A DNA stretch of 21,403 nucleotides from a virus: the IMG/VR virus record IMGVR_UViG_3300020445_000095, positions 1-21,403 of that record. One strand, given 5' to 3'. Both the position numbers and the translations under genes were made by a program. This document shows positions 1,848-15,891 of this stretch, in pieces; the stretch's first letter is position 1, and each line of letters starts with the position of its first letter. Below the pieces are notes generated by a model. It saw nothing but the letters and a program-made list of their open reading frames with translations, had not been told where the DNA came from and ran no database searches.

Positions 1848-3182
1848 TTACCACCCTGCTTGGAAAAAAGATTGTAATCGGAGTCTACCACCGAATGTAG
1901 GTGCTGATAAAGGACCACCAAAGCTAACACCAACCGCCTCGATGTTGTTAGTAGATAGTAGTGTAGCATCTGCACCTGGGAACTGAATATTAACTGGTTC
2001 AGTAATGTTAGTGGCATCAATAGTGATTAAACCGTTAACATTCTCTGGGTTGTTAATCTTCATGAATTCCATTGTTTTGTTCGCTAGAGTCTGCGTTGCT
2101 TTCTCTGCGACTAAAACGTTGGTATCAATACCATTATTTAGAGGTTCTGCAAGAGAACCTTCTGGGAAAGTCCACTGCAAATTGCTGTTAGCATTAAGAT
2201 TTGTTAGATTAAAACTAATCTTCTTAGTGTTATCACCAGTGTCCTCAAAAATGGCACCCTTATAAACCTTGTTAGTTAATGTCTGTGTAGATGAAGTTCC
2301 TACCACAGTAACATTAAGGTCTGGCCAAGTAACCGTACGATCTGAAGTTAATCCAGATGAATCGAAGATTATATACTTGGTTGGATTATTCTCATCTGTA
2401 GACGGTGTAGTAGACATGGTGGGGTTCACCAAGTTCTTATTCTTAACGTCTTGCTGAGTTATATCATCAAGTAGTGTTGACTGCGTAATGGTAGTACCAT
2501 AATCAGGAAGACGATAGATATGCTGACCAGGAGCATCCCACGCATCTGTCTCGAACTTTGCAATCTTAGAAACGTCAGTAGAACCAGTTATCTGTAGGTC
2601 ATTATCTTTAATGATAATAGACTTATTAGTTAACGTTTGGAATGTATCTGCTGCAACTATAGTTGCTGAAGTATTTGCACCTACATTAGGAAAGTCGAAA
2701 CGACGTATACCACCTGCAGTAGAAACGGTATCTACATTAAAGACCACCTTCTTTCCAGGGTTTTGATCCCCCTCAAAGAATACGTTAGAGTCTGTAAATG
2801 TAGCAGATCCATTAACTGTGAAATATCCACTACCCTGAGGGACTACCTCCACATTAGAGTTTGCTGACGCAGTATCAACAGCACGAATTTGTAATGTTGA
2901 TGAACCGTCTTGGTTTGCGTTACGTTGATTATATAATGATGCACTACCGAATGTGAGTCCAATTTCATTAACTGCACTCTGGTAGATTCCAGTGTCCCTA
3001 TCCAAATCGAAAGCCAGTCCTGGAGCACTCTGTGAGCCTGCAGAAACTGACCTAAAAAGTTGATTAACCTTTGATTTTCTATTCGGAATAAGTGGGTCTG
3101 ATATAACAATAGGAAGCACCGCTTCCCCAGTCACCAACGCATCAGCTATAGTATCAAGTTGTGATATTCTTTTAGTTGCCAC
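1848..3182 (-). CDS. Tail-fibre-like virion structural protein with TLTNK repeats
   Basis: This 444-residue protein starts at GTG. An in-frame TGA lies two codons upstream and no in-frame ATG is available. The N-terminus (ATKRISQLD, then a block ending in KVNQLFRSVSAG) is followed by PGLAFDLDRDTGIYQS near residues 54-70, a signature common in phage fibre and appendage proteins. Three diverged repeats carry the core QTL(T/A)NK, at about residues 183, 303 and 362, each following a beta-rich stretch. The C-terminus ends FGGRLRLQSFFQAGW. A TATAAATA box lies 27 nt upstream of the start, which fits late expression, and the gene is followed after 6 nt by another large structural gene. The exact structural role is not known. 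Fibre or decoration protein is an inference from the repeats. Confidence 0.75.
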   Translation of the reverse strand: MATKRISQLDTIADALVTGEAVLPIVISDPLIPNRKSKVNQLFRSVSAGSQSAPGLAFDLDRDTGIYQSAVNEIGLTFGSASLYNQRNANQDGSSTLQIRAVDTASANSNVEVVPQGSGYFTVNGSATFTDSNVFFEGDQNPGKKVVFNVDTVSTAGGIRRFDFPNVGANTSATIVAADTFQTLTNKSIIIKDNDLQITGSTDVSKIAKFETDAWDAPGQHIYRLPDYGTTITQSTLLDDITQQDVKNKNLVNPTMSTTPSTDENNPTKYIIFDSSGLTSDRTVTWPDLNVTVVGTSSTQTLTNKVYKGAIFEDTGDNTKKISFNLTNLNANSNLQWTFPEGSLAEPLNNGIDTNVLVAEKATQTLANKTMEFMKINNPENVNGLITIDATNITEPVNIQFPGADATLLSTNNIEAVGVSFGGPLSAPTFGGRLRLQSFFQAGW

Positions 3183-8411: not shown

Positions 8412-10037
8412 TCAAGATTTGGGTACCGAATCCCTACAAAGGTAGAGTTCTGTGGTGATTCCCTCTTTATTGTAATGATGTACTAGACCCTTAATAAGGT
8501 ACCTACCACTGTACCTTGCGTCATCCTGAACTGTGTCTGTACCTTTGGTTTGTATAGATGACGGTATCACACAACTGATTACTGAACCTGCATATAAAGC
8601 AGTATTTCCTGGAACCTTGATAGTTAGGGACAGTGTATTTAATAATGATAGTCTACCTGATGCATAGTTAGATACAGCTAATATATCCTCAGGTGCATTA
8701 TCAGCACCGTTATTAGGTTGACCAGCAGTCTGATTAGAATACTTTGGAAGAATCTTAACCTTAATCCTAGTAGGATGATCTTTTATATATTGGGCTGCTT
8801 TCTTAGCATCGTAAGGGAATCCCTCCTCTAAAGTAGATGCAATCTCAAACAACTTATTCATTGCATTGATAGCAGGTGGCATCTTAGTACCTCCTGGTTT
8901 TGACTGGTTCTCTGCAGTTTTAATCTGAGTAGCAGTATTCTTCCAGTTCATAGTATTGGCATTAATATCCATATTAAATGAACGATCCGATTCTCCCCCT
9001 GCATTATAGAAATTAACTGATGTCTTACCTTTATCTAAGTAATCTTGGAACTCTGCACTATTAAGTGATTTTGCTTTCTCTGGGTTAAAAGCATCTCCAA
9101 CGATTTGCTTAGTGTTCTTATATACATCATACAATTTATCAAATATACCACTACTACTAGCAGATCCATTTGGAATAGCACTCTCTGAAATAGCAGAAAT
9201 TACAACACCGTAAGAGATATTCTTATATAATCCTGTTCTCATCTTATCCAGATGATTCATCCTTTCTGGATATGTAATAGACTCAATACGATAAGCATTA
9301 TCACCACGAGCACTACCAGATAGGTTTGCTTGAGTGTAAGTATAAGTCTCAAGAGTATCCTGCTCACAGAGTTTATCAATACTATGAAAATTAAATCCCT
9401 TCCTATTCTCGTAGAATAAGAACCCTGACTGAGATACCTTCTTACCACCCTTCTGTCCTTTAGGTGATTTTCTTACTACTTTATCAGTCATATAACTGAT
9501 ACAGTCAACAGGTCTCCAGTTAGGAGAAACAAAATTAAGATTACTATGTGGTTCTATTGCTTCATCATGCTTAATCTTATGTGGTGCCTTTAATTTCTCA
9601 GAAATAACAGTCTTTATTACTTCTGGTTTCTGGGCATAAGGACCAAGTGCACCAAAGGTTCTATTAGATTCATTTAGATATATCTCTGGAGATGAACAAT
9701 GGAGTATATACGCCTTCTTCCTTTCCGACTTAATAACTGATCCTATCTTATAAATCTGCAGATCAGCATCTATCATAATTCTCTCTGGATCTCTACTCTG
9801 TCTCCTATTCTTAGGTACTGCTGCGTAGGTCTCAAAGCACAACTTAACCATCTCATCACCAAACAACCTGTCACCAAACTGTACGGTATCTAACATACTA
9901 ATATCACACCGAACAAATGGTGAATCTATGGTTTCATACCACTGAAATTCTGCAATCATTCCAGTAATATCATACTTTTCATCTTGTACTACGACATAAG
10001 CGTCGTGTAATCTATATTCTTTGGTATCTGCTGACAT
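8412..10037 (-). CDS. 27: Baseplate hub protein gp27-like
   Basis: A 541-residue protein without a signal peptide or membrane segment, located directly before the metabolic cassette and gp5. The gp27-gp5 order and the beta-rich N-terminus (VVVQDEKYDITGMIAEFQWY, then FVRCDISMLD with FGD) fit the T4 gp27/VgrG hub fold. The C-terminus, about residues 450-541, has a tube-like pattern: GRLSLLNTLSLTIKVPGNTA, then YSGRYLIKGLVHHYNKEG and a final strand TTELYLCRD. T4 gp27 has 391 residues. The extra length falls mainly in a Ser/Asn/Lys-rich middle, roughly 285-400. The start overlaps the stop of the preceding gene (TAATG). Identification rests on context plus weak sequence similarity. Confidence 0.75.
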   Translation of the reverse strand: MSADTKEYRLHDAYVVVQDEKYDITGMIAEFQWYETIDSPFVRCDISMLDTVQFGDRLFGDEMVKLCFETYAAVPKNRRQSRDPERIMIDADLQIYKIGSVIKSERKKAYILHCSSPEIYLNESNRTFGALGPYAQKPEVIKTVISEKLKAPHKIKHDEAIEPHSNLNFVSPNWRPVDCISYMTDKVVRKSPKGQKGGKKVSQSGFLFYENRKGFNFHSIDKLCEQDTLETYTYTQANLSGSARGDNAYRIESITYPERMNHLDKMRTGLYKNISYGVVISAISESAIPNGSASSSGIFDKLYDVYKNTKQIVGDAFNPEKAKSLNSAEFQDYLDKGKTSVNFYNAGGESDRSFNMDINANTMNWKNTATQIKTAENQSKPGGTKMPPAINAMNKLFEIASTLEEGFPYDAKKAAQYIKDHPTRIKVKILPKYSNQTAGQPNNGADNAPEDILAVSNYASGRLSLLNTLSLTIKVPGNTALYAGSVISCVIPSSIQTKGTDTVQDDARYSGRYLIKGLVHHYNKEGITTELYLCRDSVPKS

Positions 10038-12484
10038 TAGAACATCTCAACTGGTGCGGTATTTCCCTCTGCCATCAATCCATATCTAGTCTGGAAATAA
10101 TCGTTAGCAGGTACTTCATATTTACTGTCAACGAATATTGGTGGTGGAGGACCAGCATCCGCTTGTTTACCCATTTTAATAGGTGCTAGATCTCCTTTAT
10201 GTATACTAACACCACCATCACTATCTCCTCCTCCTTCATCAAATTCACCACCCTCTGACATTGCCTGAACATTAATATATTCACCTGTAAGTTCTGCTTT
10301 TGGTACCATACCACCTGCAGATAAGCGACCTGCAGCTTTCTTTGCACTAGCAGATATATCAGCACCTAGAATCTCCATTTCCATCTGATCCTTAAGTTCT
10401 AACGCAAACCTTGCTTCAGGGTTTGATGCAAGATACGCTTGCTTATCTTCTTCAGTTAACCTCTCCTCCGATCCCTCAAAAATAAGTTCTTTACCTCTTT
10501 GTTTGTACTTCCATTTGGTTCTCGTCATGGTATCGAAATTCATATCATCAGATGATTCTTCTTTTATTCCAGCACCATAATATTCTTTACCCATTGCTTT
10601 TGTAAGTTCCACACCATCAGCATAAGTTATTTTCTTTAAAGGAGGTAATCCCAGAAATTCTGTTCGTTCTTTATTAACCCAATAAAGAGTTTCCTCTTCT
10701 ATACGTCTTTTCTCTTCTGGATCAGTTACGGTACCCCTAGTATGTCCTAACTCTTCACTCATAGGGTTCTTACCATATTTGAGATTACCACCGTTCTTCA
10801 TATCCTGAAGCAATCCACCAGCACTAAATCCTGGTATGCTAAATCCTTTATTGGCTGCTTCCTGAGTCCTTCTACCAGTTAATCCTGCATTACCTCTAGT
10901 TGCAGGAGTATCATATGGGACTACAAATGCACCACCAGTTTTCTTTTGTGCAACATACTCTGTGCCATGACCTATAAATGATGTGCTCCTACCACCATCA
11001 AGTGATACAGGATAACCTGACTGAGGTCCAGTTATCCAACCACCTGCTGCCATCTTTGGCTGATTCTGGTATGCCCTCATATTCCTAGAGAGAATATTAC
11101 GTTCCCTAGCACCTATGTCATTAGTCCATTCATCATCACTTAATCCAGCAAAAGGTTGAGAAAGATCGTATGTTTTCCTACCAATCTTAAATTCTTTCTC
11201 TATTGGTTTTACATTCTTCTTCTTCGTTTTCTCCGTTTTCTCCTGTGTATTCTTTGGTTTCTCTTTATTCCCAAAAAGGTTTAACCCCCCTTTGGCAATT
11301 TTTTTAGGTTTAACTTTTCCTTTCTTACCCTTACCCTCTGCTCTTTCTAATTTCTGTTTTAATGCATCAAGAACATCCTTATCACCACCATTTAGTTCCT
11401 CCTCTCTAATCTGAAGCTTAATATATTCAGGCATATCAAGAGCATCAGTCCCAAATTTGTCGGTTAGACGATCCATCTTCTCTTCTAATTCTATCTCCTC
11501 ATCCACACTAGCCGTATCTGCTTTTTTCTTTTTACCTTTGGGATCATCTTCATCATCCTTCTTCCCACCAAATAGAGTCTTTAATCCCCATGCAGCAAGT
11601 ACACCTGCACCTACCATAAGAGCAGCTCTAGGTCTTGCCATAATGAAGCCTAATACTCCCTTAAAGACACCCATCAATCCTTTGAGCATGGAACCTATAA
11701 GCTTAAAGAGTTTGCCACCCTTAAAGAGTGCCATTACACCTTTCATGCCTAGTGCTGCCATCTTTGCAGGTGCAAAGAATACTGCTGCAGCAGTTAAGAA
11801 TTTAACAATTCCAAATATACCTTTAAAACTAAGTGGATTCTCTAAGAAGTCTGTAAGACCATCTAATCCCATATTAATTAAGAATCCAGCAATCTTAAGT
11901 AACCACTTACCTATTCTGGTAACACCCTGTACAACCTTCTCCACCTTCTTCAGGTTTTCAGGATTACCCATCCACTTCAGGAAGGCAACTGTTACCATTG
12001 TCTTAAAGATTCTACCAATAAATTTAGCTATACCTTCGAAGAATCCAAATGCATTAGAGACAGCACCTACAACAGCACCTGCTTTATACCCAAATCCTGT
12101 CTTTTCTTTAGGATCTGGTGATCCTTCTTGTTGTGCTTCACCCTCTAGATCCTCTTCTAAATTTTCTTTTTGTTTTATATCCTCTGCTTCTGCCTTTCTC
12201 TGATCTACTAATTTTTGTACACCCTCTTCTCTCTGATCTGCTAATTCTTGCTGTTGTTGTATCTGCATTTTCATGCTTTCAGCAAAAGTCGCATTCATCT
12301 GTGCGACCATTATTGCAATACTATTAGTAGTAAGACCTAACCTGTTGATTGCCTTTACGGATGTGGTCATACCCTCAGTACCACCACCGTAAGTAAAGCT
12401 TTTACCTACCTCCACAGTGATACCACCTCCAGGTTTAGGAGGAGTTATTACTTTATATAATCGTGCTTTTGGTGTTGCTGCCAT
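10037..12484 (-). CDS. Tape-measure-like / baseplate hub structural protein, paralogue B
   Basis: An 815-residue protein with three parts. The N-terminal helical region, about residues 45-125, is rich in Gln, Glu and Lys (MKMQIQQQQELADQREEG) and looks like a coiled coil. Residues about 130-300 are hydrophobic and amphipathic, with VAFLKWMGNPENLKKVEKVV near 165 and repeated Gly-rich membrane-like stretches to about 300. A charged Lys-rich hinge (about 305-420) leads to a Gly-rich C-terminal part with YDLSQPFAGLSDDEW near 440. The layout, length and position after the tail chaperone resemble phage tape-measure proteins, which set tail length and enter the host membrane. It is paralogous to the gene just upstream. 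T4 gp29 is the functional candidate, but direct identity was not established. Confidence 0.65.
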   Translation of the reverse strand: MAATPKARLYKVITPPKPGGGITVEVGKSFTYGGGTEGMTTSVKAINRLGLTTNSIAIMVAQMNATFAESMKMQIQQQQELADQREEGVQKLVDQRKAEAEDIKQKENLEEDLEGEAQQEGSPDPKEKTGFGYKAGAVVGAVSNAFGFFEGIAKFIGRIFKTMVTVAFLKWMGNPENLKKVEKVVQGVTRIGKWLLKIAGFLINMGLDGLTDFLENPLSFKGIFGIVKFLTAAAVFFAPAKMAALGMKGVMALFKGGKLFKLIGSMLKGLMGVFKGVLGFIMARPRAALMVGAGVLAAWGLKTLFGGKKDDEDDPKGKKKKADTASVDEEIELEEKMDRLTDKFGTDALDMPEYIKLQIREEELNGGDKDVLDALKQKLERAEGKGKKGKVKPKKIAKGGLNLFGNKEKPKNTQEKTEKTKKKNVKPIEKEFKIGRKTYDLSQPFAGLSDDEWTNDIGARERNILSRNMRAYQNQPKMAAGGWITGPQSGYPVSLDGGRSTSFIGHGTEYVAQKKTGGAFVVPYDTPATRGNAGLTGRRTQEAANKGFSIPGFSAGGLLQDMKNGGNLKYGKNPMSEELGHTRGTVTDPEEKRRIEEETLYWVNKERTEFLGLPPLKKITYADGVELTKAMGKEYYGAGIKEESSDDMNFDTMTRTKWKYKQRGKELIFEGSEERLTEEDKQAYLASNPEARFALELKDQMEMEILGADISASAKKAAGRLSAGGMVPKAELTGEYINVQAMSEGGEFDEGGGDSDGGVSIHKGDLAPIKMGKQADAGPPPPIFVDSKYEVPANDYFQTRYGLMAEGNTAPVEMF

Positions 12485-12485
12485 C

Positions 12486-14993
12486 TTACGACCTCATATT
12501 GCCATTAAGCATAACTGGAGTAGATGTATATACTACTTTTGGTGCTGGTGTTGGACTAGAACCAGGTATGTATACCTGTTGTCTAGCTGCTACCACAACA
12601 GTATTTGTTCTTGCCCTACGTTTCCGCTTAATGGGTCTATTGATTTTAGGAACTTTACTTCCAACTGCGTCCCTTGTATTTATCCTTCCACCTATAGATT
12701 TCTTACCTATCTGGAACGGAATTACTCCACCCATTCCCTTCTTAGGTGCCTCTTTCATCTTCTGCTCTTTATGATCCCATCCCCATTCACTTACTGGAAC
12801 ACCTGAAAGGTCCGTATAATACATAATATGATTTGTGACTTGTTTCCTTTCCCAGTCACTTAACTCTTTAGTATATTGTTTATTAGTCAATCCACCCATA
12901 AGTCTGGATAAATCAAACATACGATTTTTGTATTTTGATTTCTTTCCGAACCTAATATCCTTACCTTTCTTAAAAGGAGACTTGTGTGGGTAAACTTTCT
13001 TCTCTTCCTTCTTCTTCTCGCTAACAGGTGTAATATCCTTCGCATCTTCTTTTTCTCTTTTCTCTGCTAATTTTTGTTGATCGCCAGAAAGCTTATCATT
13101 CATCGCTGTATCATCAGGATCCCTTACTATCTTTCTTGGACTTAATCCAGTTAACTTCGCAAAAGGATCATCAATAGTACCCAATTTACCTTTAGGAGTT
13201 GGCATATGCACTAATCCTTTAGCAAGTAATCTTGCTGCTTGCTCTCCAACAAATCCACCTGCCATACCAGTAATAAATCCAGGAGCACCACCAAACGGAG
13301 CACCAATGGCAAAACCTGCTGTATATCCTAACAACCCACCAAGTGCTCGAAGAATAGCATTAACAGGAGACTCACCTAATAAAGCATAATCAATAACTCC
13401 CATGATAGCAGCGATAACCTTATCAACACCACCAATCTTCATCTTCTTTGCTGCTTTAAGACCGTCTTTTAGTTTTAATACATTCTTATTCTTTGATGCA
13501 CCTTTTAATATCTTACCTATTTCTTTGGGGTTTTTCCCAATTTTCATTACCTGTTTGATAGTCTTATTCTTTTTAAGAATGCCATCTATCTGACCCATCA
13601 GTTGCTTCTTAACCTTATCAACCAACTTCATAGGATTCTTTGCCAACTCAACGACATCACCTATAGTCTGAGCCCATTTCGCAGCCCTTCCTCTAATGCC
13701 ACCAATAACGTTATCAGCATTTGCCAGTTGTTTTTTGGCATAACCATCTGCCCACTTCACGAACTTGCTACCCTGTTCACCTATAACGTTTTTAAGCTTA
13801 GTACCTTCTCTAATTCCAGTTTTCCATAGATTCTGCCCAGTAGATTTAAGACTCTTCCACCAGCTTCCACCACCAGGAGGTTTCTTTACTTTCTCAAGTA
13901 ACTTCTGACCCTTTTGTGCAAGAGGTTTAACGTTTTTCTTAACAAACTGCTCGGCACCTTCTTCTATCGCTTTTCTCTTCTTAACAATAGTTTCCTTAGT
14001 CTGCTTAATACGATCAGCAAAGGTCTTGGGTTTCGTTTTTATTTTGGTTTTTGTCTTAGTAGTCTTTTGATTCTTCTTTTGATTCTTCTGCTGCTTCTTC
14101 TTATTATCCTTTTTCTGCTTCTTATCCTGTTTCTTCTTATTATCCTTCTTCTTATTATCCTTCTTCTGATTCTTCTGATTCTTTTTAAAATCTGGTTTCT
14201 CACCCATTGTCAATGCTCTACCTATGCTACGCATAGCTTTGACATCACTTAATAGCTTCCATGGCATTAGCATCCTAGATGCTAACCAGAAACTCGCCAT
14301 TCCACCCAGAATCTTAAAGACCCCAAACATTGCCTCAAAAGCTTTGCTAAGGTGACTTTGACCTGGTTCTCTATCTCCAAATATATTACCAATGCCCTCC
14401 AAGACATTATTCATACCAAAACTGACCAAACCGAATACCAGTTTACCCAGTCCTCTTATGAATTTAAGGAATGTCTCTATCCGTTTAGTATTCTTCGGAT
14501 CAGACAACCATTTCATGAACCCAACCGCAATAAACGGTCCTATAAGATTCTTAAGAAAACTGAATAACGGTTTAAAGGGAGCAGCAAGTGTCTCTATCCA
14601 ACTAAATTTCTTCTTATCTGCTTTTTCTGCTTGATCTAACCCCGCTTCGTTCTCTTCTTCCTCATTTGGTTCTAATTCTTGTGCAGTTTCTGCCTCTTGA
14701 TCCTGTATTCGATCCTCTTTTTTCTTCTTTTTCTTAGCAGTCTGTTTCCTCATGCTAAGTTTCTTATTAGTCTCTTCTTCCTGTTTTTTAGTTCTCTCTA
14801 AAAAATTCTCAAGAAGAAACTCTTTCTGAAACTCCATCATAGTAACGATACCTTGCAGGTTCTTTCCAATACCTGTCAAAGTACCACCTAATCTATTATA
14901 GGCAAAAGTCTGAGCTCTAAGTTGCTTCCCAAAGGCAGTAGTTGCCTTAGGAGGTGGAACGTTTATATATTTCTTTAGAACTGCTGTTGCCAT
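12486..14993 (-). CDS. Tape-measure-like / baseplate hub structural protein, paralogue A
   Basis: An 835-residue, very basic protein. After an N-terminal region of coiled coil and charge clusters (about residues 50-130) comes VGFMKWLSDPKNTKRIETFL near 155, aligning with VAFLKWMGNPENLKKVEKVV of the downstream gene. It then has hydrophobic segments to about 245, a Lys/Asn/Gln low-complexity tract at about 268-318, further helices, and a Gly/Ala-rich hydrophobic block near 545-590 (GLLGYTAGFAIGAPFGGAPG). FDLSRLMGGLTNKQYTKELS near 695 aligns with YDLSQPFAGLSDDEWTNDIG of the paralogue. The start overlaps the stop of the 63-aa frame (TAATG). Position directly after the putative tail-assembly chaperone makes it the leading tape-measure candidate; this is inference. 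Confidence 0.65.
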   Translation of the reverse strand: MATAVLKKYINVPPPKATTAFGKQLRAQTFAYNRLGGTLTGIGKNLQGIVTMMEFQKEFLLENFLERTKKQEEETNKKLSMRKQTAKKKKKKEDRIQDQEAETAQELEPNEEEENEAGLDQAEKADKKKFSWIETLAAPFKPLFSFLKNLIGPFIAVGFMKWLSDPKNTKRIETFLKFIRGLGKLVFGLVSFGMNNVLEGIGNIFGDREPGQSHLSKAFEAMFGVFKILGGMASFWLASRMLMPWKLLSDVKAMRSIGRALTMGEKPDFKKNQKNQKKDNKKKDNKKKQDKKQKKDNKKKQQKNQKKNQKTTKTKTKIKTKPKTFADRIKQTKETIVKKRKAIEEGAEQFVKKNVKPLAQKGQKLLEKVKKPPGGGSWWKSLKSTGQNLWKTGIREGTKLKNVIGEQGSKFVKWADGYAKKQLANADNVIGGIRGRAAKWAQTIGDVVELAKNPMKLVDKVKKQLMGQIDGILKKNKTIKQVMKIGKNPKEIGKILKGASKNKNVLKLKDGLKAAKKMKIGGVDKVIAAIMGVIDYALLGESPVNAILRALGGLLGYTAGFAIGAPFGGAPGFITGMAGGFVGEQAARLLAKGLVHMPTPKGKLGTIDDPFAKLTGLSPRKIVRDPDDTAMNDKLSGDQQKLAEKREKEDAKDITPVSEKKKEEKKVYPHKSPFKKGKDIRFGKKSKYKNRMFDLSRLMGGLTNKQYTKELSDWERKQVTNHIMYYTDLSGVPVSEWGWDHKEQKMKEAPKKGMGGVIPFQIGKKSIGGRINTRDAVGSKVPKINRPIKRKRRARTNTVVVAARQQVYIPGSSPTPAPKVVYTSTPVMLNGNMRS
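14065..14187 (-). repeat. Lys/Asn/Gln low-complexity repeat tract
   Basis: Within paralogue A the plus strand shows imperfect tandem copies of units such as ttcttcttattatcc and gattcttctt. They encode a run of Lys with interspersed Asp, Asn and Gln at residues about 268-318. The composition is strongly biased compared with the flanks. It probably forms a flexible basic linker and is a likely site of length change by slippage. Confidence 0.7.
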
Positions 14994-15184
14994 TAAAGAC
15001 TTACTCTATTACTGTTTTCCTGTTGTTTCGCCTTCCTCTCTTGTTCCTGTAAATGAGCAATGAGAAGATTCACATAGACATCACGTTCCCACGGTATCAT
15101 ATTCTCCAACTCAGTAAGACTATACTTATGATGCTGCATTAATGCAAAGTTAGTCTCAAACATATTCTTAAGACTATCGTGCAT
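14993..15184 (-). CDS. 63-aa frame, probable -1 frameshift extension of the gp26 tail-assembly chaperone
   Basis: A 63-residue helical frame (MHDSLKNMFETNFALMQHHK..., then LENMIPWERDVYVNLLIAHL, ending in a charged tail). Its frame is open upstream of its own ATG through L, A, I and R codons, up to the T TTT TTC heptamer at the end of gp26, where an in-frame TAG closes it. It is therefore exactly the -1 extension of gp26. Its own ATG, 5 nt after the gp26 stop, has only a weak GGAT-type ribosome site. Similar short C-terminal extensions, between a chaperone and the tape-measure gene, are the T part of lambda GT-type fusions. Separate translation by reinitiation is possible. It occupies a place where T4 gp51 could be expected, but the length (T4 gp51 is 249 aa) gives no support for that name. 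Confidence 0.65.
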   Translation of the reverse strand: MHDSLKNMFETNFALMQHHKYSLTELENMIPWERDVYVNLLIAHLQEQERKAKQQENSNRVSL

Positions 15185-15189
15185 TAACG

Positions 15190-15891
15190 CTATCCGAAAA
15201 AACTAGCTAGTCCCTCCAGTAATAGTTCGCTCTTTTTCTTAGTCTTAGGATTAAAAACCTCAATGGTATGCTCAAGTTTTGGCATAGTCTCAAAGAAATC
15301 TTGGATTTTCTTAAACTGATCCTGATTCATGTCACCGATGAAATCAACTGCTTCCTGTTTAGTAAAGGAGTCATAGATCTCTTCGCCTTGATATACTTTA
15401 TCAATACACTCTGCAGAGAGTGCAAAAACATCATCCATAGATGGTTCATTTTTCATATTACGATCAATGAACGCATTTAGAGAAGGATACTTCATCTCTA
15501 TTTTAATGTCATCATCTACATCAAGGATCCTTTTATGTTCCTTAGGTATAGTTAACTCAATGTCTTCCAAATTAAGTTCGACATCAATTTGGGTTTTATC
15601 ATCATCAGGGGCAGTAACCTTAAATTCACTCTTTTCTCCTACTGCTTTCGCACGGATCCTGAGGAATAAGTACTCTATCTCAAATGTAGGCAGTTTATTA
15701 ATATCTTTCACATTGGTGCATGATTTAAGAATATTCCTAACCGCCTTTGCCATTTCCTTCTCATCTTGGGATTCCATTGCCAAGTAAAGCAATTTCTCCT
15801 CTTTCACAAGAAATGGTCTATAACTGACTTTTGTACCACTAACAGGTAGTACGCAGTCATAATCAGGCACTGCAAGTTTTGGTAAAGGCAT
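15190..15891 (-). CDS. 26: Baseplate hub / tail-assembly chaperone gp26-like
   Basis: A 233-residue acidic protein fitting the T4 gp26 baseplate protein family (T4: 208 residues). The N-terminal segment (YDCVLPVSGTKVSYRPFLVK, followed by EEKLLYLAMES) and the centre (EYLFLRIRAKAVGE) are characteristic. The C-terminus ends LLLEGLASFFG. Located right before the tape-measure-like genes, it takes the place of the tail-assembly chaperone. The final codons AGT TTT TTC GGA TAG contain a slippery heptamer. A -1 shift would give a product of about 299 residues, with 232 gp26 residues joined through R-I-A-L to the 63-aa frame. A 25-nt AT-rich spacer separates it from gp54, and a CTAAATA box lies 23 nt before the ATG. 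No clear ribosome site is visible. Confidence 0.8.
   Translation of the reverse strand: MPLPKLAVPDYDCVLPVSGTKVSYRPFLVKEEKLLYLAMESQDEKEMAKAVRNILKSCTNVKDINKLPTFEIEYLFLRIRAKAVGEKSEFKVTAPDDDKTQIDVELNLEDIELTIPKEHKRILDVDDDIKIEMKYPSLNAFIDRNMKNEPSMDDVFALSAECIDKVYQGEEIYDSFTKQEAVDFIGDMNQDQFKKIQDFFETMPKLEHTIEVFNPKTKKKSELLLEGLASFFG
15196..15217 (-). promoter_or_regulatory. Programmed -1 frameshift signal (GGAGG stimulator plus T TTT TTC heptamer)
   Basis: On the minus strand, GGAGG (15217-15213) is followed by 10 nt and then TTTTTTC (15202-15196), read in the gp26 frame as ..T TTT TTC. This is a standard X XXY YYZ slip site. The distance from a Shine-Dalgarno-like element equals that known for E. coli dnaX. 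GGAGG is 28 nt from the next ATG, too far to serve it. The -1 frame opens exactly at the heptamer (TAG just before) and runs into the 63-aa frame. No strong downstream hairpin is evident. Confidence 0.65.

What the first reader, a model, noticed from the sequence alone, without database searches (positions are those of the whole stretch)
15182..15217. Programmed -1 ribosomal frameshift joining gp26 to the following 63-aa frame
Seen: the minus strand reads GGAGG, 10 nt, then T TTT TTC in the gp26 reading frame, followed by GGA TAG. The -1 frame has a TAG immediately before the heptamer, then is open through CGG ATA GCG TTA and into the ATG of the 63-aa frame, so the opening coincides precisely with the slip site. 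Known: lambda-like phages produce two forms of the tail-assembly chaperone by -1 slippage just before the tape-measure gene, and dnaX uses a Shine-Dalgarno-like stimulator 10 nt before its slip site. Inference: a T4-like cyanophage uses the same device at gp26, and the 63-aa frame is mainly an extension domain.
Basis: partly seen in the sequence, partly recalled or inferred. Interest (0 to 1): 0.85.

Follow-up and report, generated by a model that had tools for sequence, protein, structure and literature searches.

The report
Frameshifted tail-assembly chaperone in cyanophage
In this marine T4-like phage the ribosome is programmed to slip back one base at the end of gene 26, so one gene makes a short and a long form of the protein that chaperones tail assembly; the signal is real and conserved, but this kind of frameshift was already proposed for T4-like phages in 2022.

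Summary
The minus strand carries GGAGG, 10 nt, T_TTT_TTC, one codon, then the gp26 stop, and the -1 frame runs into the 63-aa frame. The slip site is invariant in 76 of 76 non-redundant environmental relatives, and the codon before it always ends in T although its amino acid varies. The residues between the slip site and the supposed ATG are conserved, and 8 of 76 relatives have no ATG/GTG/TTG in the first ten extension codons. T2 gp51, on the opposite strand from gp26, is a gp26-like domain plus the same extension, and T2 gp26 has not kept the slip codons. So T4-type phages encode the two forms as separate genes, while this group makes both from one gene. The gene is the tail assembly chaperone (TAC-N/TAC-NC), the counterpart of lambda G/GT. 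This was proposed by Vladimirov, Gautam and Davidson (Virology 2022), which I could cite only through later papers and memory. It is a well-supported member of a known kind. The two-sided stimulator and the non-canonical sites in Ackermannviridae are what I did not find described.

The parts
15190..15891 (-). gp26-family gene (TAC-N, short form, 233 aa)
   Evidence: PF12322 E=4e-68; PHROG 150
15213..15217 (-). Shine-Dalgarno-like stimulator GGAGG, 10 nt before the heptamer
   Evidence: GAGG or GGAGG at spacing 10 in 59/76 relatives, weaker GAAGG in 17/76
15196..15202 (-). slippery heptamer T_TTT_TTC in the gp26 frame
   Evidence: invariant in 76/76 non-redundant relatives
15190..15192 (-). 0-frame stop TAG ending the short form
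15136..15190 (-). predicted stimulatory hairpin (11-bp outer and 10-bp inner helix) starting 5 nt after the heptamer
   Evidence: z -4.9 against dinucleotide shuffles of the 98-nt stretch; z -4.5 against synonymous resampling; covariation in 14 clade members; folding peak at this place across 75 loci
14993..15196 (-). -1 frame extension (TAC-C; 67 codons, RIAL plus the 63-aa frame, then stop)
   Evidence: PHROG 634; conserved residues before the ATG
14993..15891 (-). predicted -1 frameshift product TAC-NC, 299 aa
   Evidence: inference
12486..14993 (-). 835-aa ORF directly downstream; candidate tape measure protein, by position only
   Evidence: HTVC008M annotates a tape measure in this neighbourhood

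Best explanation
[quoted passage not shown] Most ribosomes end at the gp26 stop and make the short form (TAC-N, 233 aa). A minority pause, with the SD-like GGAGG bound to 16S rRNA and a hairpin at the mRNA entrance. Both Phe tRNAs slip from T_TTT_TTC to TTT_TTT, the stop is passed, and the long form (TAC-NC, 299 aa) is made. The long form adds the domain annotated elsewhere as gp51. The two forms would chaperone the tape measure protein encoded downstream. Shown: the sequence, its conservation, the homology of the parts and the structural potential. Inferred: that slippage occurs, its efficiency, the role of each stimulator, and the chaperone function.
For: Heptamer codons are 100% invariant in 76 non-redundant relatives, while other conserved Phe columns mix TTT and TTC; the preceding codon is AGT/TCT/GCT/AAT/GGT, always T-ending. 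-1 phase and spacing are the same in all 82 loci read. The pre-ATG extension is conserved (R 75/76, H 73/76), and 8/76 have no ATG/GTG/TTG in the first 10 extension codons. Single-base codon differences in the four codons after the slip are 2863 synonymous to 2353 non-synonymous in the -1 frame, against 1924:2102 in the 0 frame and 289:4092 in the +1 frame (a modest contrast between the first two). The extension in the -1 frame is found in Pelagibacter, Methylophilales and Caulobacter phages, non-Tevenvirinae Straboviridae, Vibrio and Rhizobium phages. T2 gp51 = gp26-like domain + extension. T2 gp26 has FF as TTC TTT, as expected if the codons are kept only where slippage is needed. A folding-energy peak lies exactly downstream of the slip site. 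Prior literature.
Against: No expression data. Most relatives do have an ATG near the start of the extension, often a few nt after the stop, so coupled re-initiation could also make a free extension. The hairpin is absent or weak in some close relatives (L007, L011, L012), and the GCATTAATGC palindrome encodes ALM twice, so part of the outer stem may be incidental.
Confidence: 0.93

Rival explanations
1. The 63-aa frame is a separate gene translated by termination-reinitiation at the ATG that follows the gp26 stop; the T-run is only a consequence of the FF codons.
For: Most relatives have ATG within a few codons of the slip site; public records annotate a separate gp51.
Against: 8/76 lack any ATG/GTG/TTG in the first 10 extension codons. 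Annotated gp51 starts fall at an internal ATG inside the conserved extension in Syn1, HTVC008M and Melnitz. Residues before the ATG are conserved. GGAGG is 28 nt from the ATG, too far for initiation. Slip codons are invariant where other Phe codons vary.
Confidence: 0.05
2. Both frameshifting and re-initiation operate, giving TAC-N, TAC-NC and a free TAC-C.
For: TGATG or TAATG stop-start overlaps exist in some relatives such as Cr30, Rhizobium AF3 and Vibrio 6E35.
Against: The start codon is not conserved in the cyanophage set, so a free TAC-C is not a conserved product.
Confidence: 0.1
3. Transcriptional slippage on the T-run makes the fusion mRNA.
For: Runs of T can make RNA polymerase slip (general knowledge).
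Against: The run is only six T followed by an invariant C in the cyanophage set. The phase-fixed codons, SD-like element at fixed spacing and hairpin at 5 nt are ribosomal signals.
Confidence: 0.02

Closest known systems
[quoted passage not shown]
   Same: Tail assembly chaperone TAC-N of T4-like phages with T-rich -1 frameshift signals; some T4-like phages instead carry a short gene and a longer fusion gene (as cited in PMC10885494 and PMC12846349; that the frameshift holds in several T4-like groups and that the T4 genes are 26 and 51 is from memory of the abstract).
   Different: Nothing in kind. This contig is an undescribed member; the two-sided stimulator is my addition, and I could not check whether that paper reports it.
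Bacteriophage lambda gpG/gpGT
   Same: A -1 frameshift near the end of the short chaperone gene makes a long form that acts with the tape measure protein (review PMC5009743).
   Different: No sequence relation detected here; different heptamer (GGGAAAG in lambda, from memory).
E. coli dnaX frameshift
   Same: SD-like element about 10 nt upstream, slippery heptamer and a hairpin about 5 nt downstream (dnaX details from memory).
   Different: A_AAA_AAG heptamer and a DNA polymerase gene; in dnaX the shifted product is the shorter one (from memory).
Vandenendeviridae and Andersonviridae tail assembly chaperone -1 frameshift (PMC12846349)
   Same: T-rich conserved slip motif (GTTTTT), open -1 frame in all genomes.
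   Different: Different phage families.

Membership tests
Programmed -1 ribosomal frameshift site | X_XXY_YYZ heptamer in the 0 frame | tested here: met
   T_TTT_TTC
Programmed -1 ribosomal frameshift site | -1 frame open and encoding a conserved domain | tested here: met
Programmed -1 ribosomal frameshift site | stimulatory element (SD-like and/or downstream structure) | tested here: met
   by sequence and prediction only
Programmed -1 ribosomal frameshift site | trans-frame product detected | not testable with these tools
   no proteomic data on hand
Tail assembly chaperone (TAC-N/TAC-NC) of T4-like phages | TAC-N belongs to the gp26 family | tested here: met
   PF12322, PHROG 150
Tail assembly chaperone (TAC-N/TAC-NC) of T4-like phages | C-terminal extension homologous to the gp51 C-terminus | tested here: met
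Tail assembly chaperone (TAC-N/TAC-NC) of T4-like phages | position just upstream of the tape measure gene | tested here: inconclusive
   a large ORF follows directly, but its tape-measure identity rests on position; weak similarity to the HTVC008M tape measure
Tail assembly chaperone (TAC-N/TAC-NC) of T4-like phages | TAC fold | tested here: inconclusive
   Foldseek hit to HK97 tail assembly chaperone 2ob9 is rank 2 (prob 0.57) but E=1.2
Tail assembly chaperone (TAC-N/TAC-NC) of T4-like phages | binds the tape measure protein and is absent from the virion | not testable with these tools
   needs biochemistry

The most novel reading that the evidence does not exclude
The cyanophage TAC site is a two-sided, dnaX-like frameshift cassette (SD-like element, heptamer, hairpin at about 5 nt) whose hairpin has been rebuilt with different sequences in different lineages, so the TAC-N to TAC-NC ratio is under selection and tuned by lineage.
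Probability: 0.45. Interest if true: 0.45.

Novelty: new member of a known kind. Interest (0 to 1): 0.35.

Why it matters
Many deposited cyanophage genomes annotate this extension as a separate gp51 gene, at least three of those I opened with an internal start, so a conserved protein is misdescribed. The comparison with T2 shows that one frameshifting gene in most T4-like groups corresponds to two separate genes, 26 and 51, in the T4 group, which makes gp26 and gp51 of T4 readable as the short and long forms of a tail assembly chaperone. The two-sided stimulator offers a compact site for measuring frameshifting on cyanobacterial ribosomes.

Tried and rejected
A separate 63-aa gene with its own start was considered and rejected, because starts are not conserved and residues before the ATG are. 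A single conserved hairpin for all relatives was rejected: RNAalifold on all loci gave no common structure, although energies peak there. The PDB fold search was not significant, and the PDB sequence search gave nothing useful. The Vladimirov paper is not held. Tape-measure identity of the downstream ORFs could not be settled by sequence. A second T_TTT_TTC near the end of the 1848-3182 ORF was looked at and leads only to a short -1 tail.

Full report
What is there. On the minus strand the gp26-family gene (15891-15190) ends CTG GAG GGA CTA GCT AGT TTT TTC GGA TAG. GGAGG lies at 15217-15213, ten bases follow, and the heptamer T_TTT_TTC lies at 15202-15196. A -1 slip reads TTT TTT CGG ATA GCG TTA ATG and continues through the 63-aa frame to the stop at 14995-14993, giving a 299-aa product. 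The first-stage reader described this correctly.

Is it more than chance. Eighty IMG/VR relatives of gp26 and cyanophage P-RSM6 were read at the junction. Every one has NNT TTT TTC, one codon, stop, with the extension in the -1 frame; in two of them (L022, L053) that frame is cut short by a later stop. After removing loci 90% or more alike, 76 remain. In these the two Phe codons are TTT and TTC without exception, whereas the other conserved Phe columns vary. The codon before is AGT, TCT, GCT, AAT or GGT: the amino acid changes and the third base does not. Glu in the SD-like stretch is GAG in 59 of 76, against about 36% GAG in these genes overall, at a fixed spacing. The window's -1 stop directly before the heptamer is not a conserved detail.

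Frameshift or separate gene. The extension residues before the supposed ATG are conserved (R, then I/V/L, A/S/G, L/M, then H two residues on). Eight of 76 loci have no ATG, GTG or TTG in the first ten codons of the extension. In Syn1, HTVC008M and Melnitz the annotated gp51 starts at an internal ATG inside the conserved extension, a sign that the gene caller could not find a proper start. The GGAGG is 28 nt from the ATG, too far to start translation there. None of the records I opened annotates slippage at this site.

Downstream structure. The window folds into a two-helix hairpin at 15190-15136, starting five bases after the heptamer (-31 kcal/mol for the 98-nt stretch, z -4.9; this includes a second, upstream hairpin between the GGAGG and the T-run). 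Against synonymous resampling the downstream part scores z -4.5. Fourteen clade members show more paired changes than shuffles and far more pairing than slid controls. Across 75 loci, mean z in 72-nt stretches is -2.2 to -2.3 directly after the slip site and -0.2 to -1.1 in twelve stretches upstream in gp26 and in those starting eight or more codons further on. Lineages use different hairpins, for example GGTCCATATGGACC in many others.

Wider distribution. The -1 extension occurs in Pelagibacter HTVC008M and Melnitz (T_TTT_TTT), Caulobacter Cr30 (T_TTT_TTT), Cronobacter LPCS28, Aeromonas 65 and Vibrio 6E35 (T_TTT_TTC) and Rhizobium AF3 (T_TTT_TTG). In Ackermannviridae (G ATT TTC or A ATT TTC) and Vibrio K357 (A CTT TTC) the extension is present in the -1 frame but the heptamer is not canonical.

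T4 itself. In T2 genes 26 and 51 lie on opposite strands. Gp51 matches the gp26 family over residues 1-201 and the extension after that. T2 gp26 ends at the homologous place with FF encoded as TTC TTT, so the slip codons are not kept where a separate long gene exists.

Known or new. [quoted passage not shown] I recall the abstract as naming T4 genes 26 and 51 for the latter and as finding frameshifting in several T4-like groups; the paper itself is not held, so I could not confirm that cyanophages are among them. The finding is therefore a new member of a known kind. An older review that excepts T4 from the conserved G-T frameshift (PMC5009743) is consistent with this.

Function. The chaperone role rests on the lambda analogy, the neighbourhood and the published assignment. 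A T4 review lists gp26 and gp51 as hub assembly chaperones (PMC3004832). The AlphaFold model of gp26 (pLDDT 85) has the HK97 tail assembly chaperone as second PDB hit, but not significantly; matches in the viral library are mostly gp26-type baseplate hub proteins.

Noticed in passing
L091, L100, L105, L108, L115, L116 (Ackermannviridae) and L090 (Vibrio K357), gp26 3' ends: The gp51-like extension sits in the -1 frame but the site reads ATT TTC or CTT TTC, not a canonical heptamer; L090, L115 and L116 have TAATG overlaps instead. How the long form is made there is open.
   Followed up: partly
window 1848-3182 (-), near its 3' end: A second in-frame T_TTT_TTC lies 12 nt before the stop of this 444-aa ORF; the -1 frame closes after a few codons, so it is probably incidental.
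   Followed up: partly
window 15196-15217 (-): GGAGGGACT can pair with AGTTTTTTC in a hairpin that would hide both the SD-like element and the slip site in free mRNA.
   Followed up: no
window 12486-14993 and 10037-12484 (-): The two large ORFs downstream share PHROG matches (17500, 1200, 2588, 13530, 790), so they look like paralogues; which one is the tape measure is unclear, and the PHROG label endolysin looks doubtful.
   Followed up: partly
L084, L092, L093 (HTVC008M, Melnitz, Syn1): Annotated gp51 starts are internal and truncate the conserved extension.
   Followed up: yes
L022 and L053 after the slip site: The -1 extension is cut short by a stop (42 and 16 codons), which may be sequencing or assembly error or real loss.
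   Followed up: no
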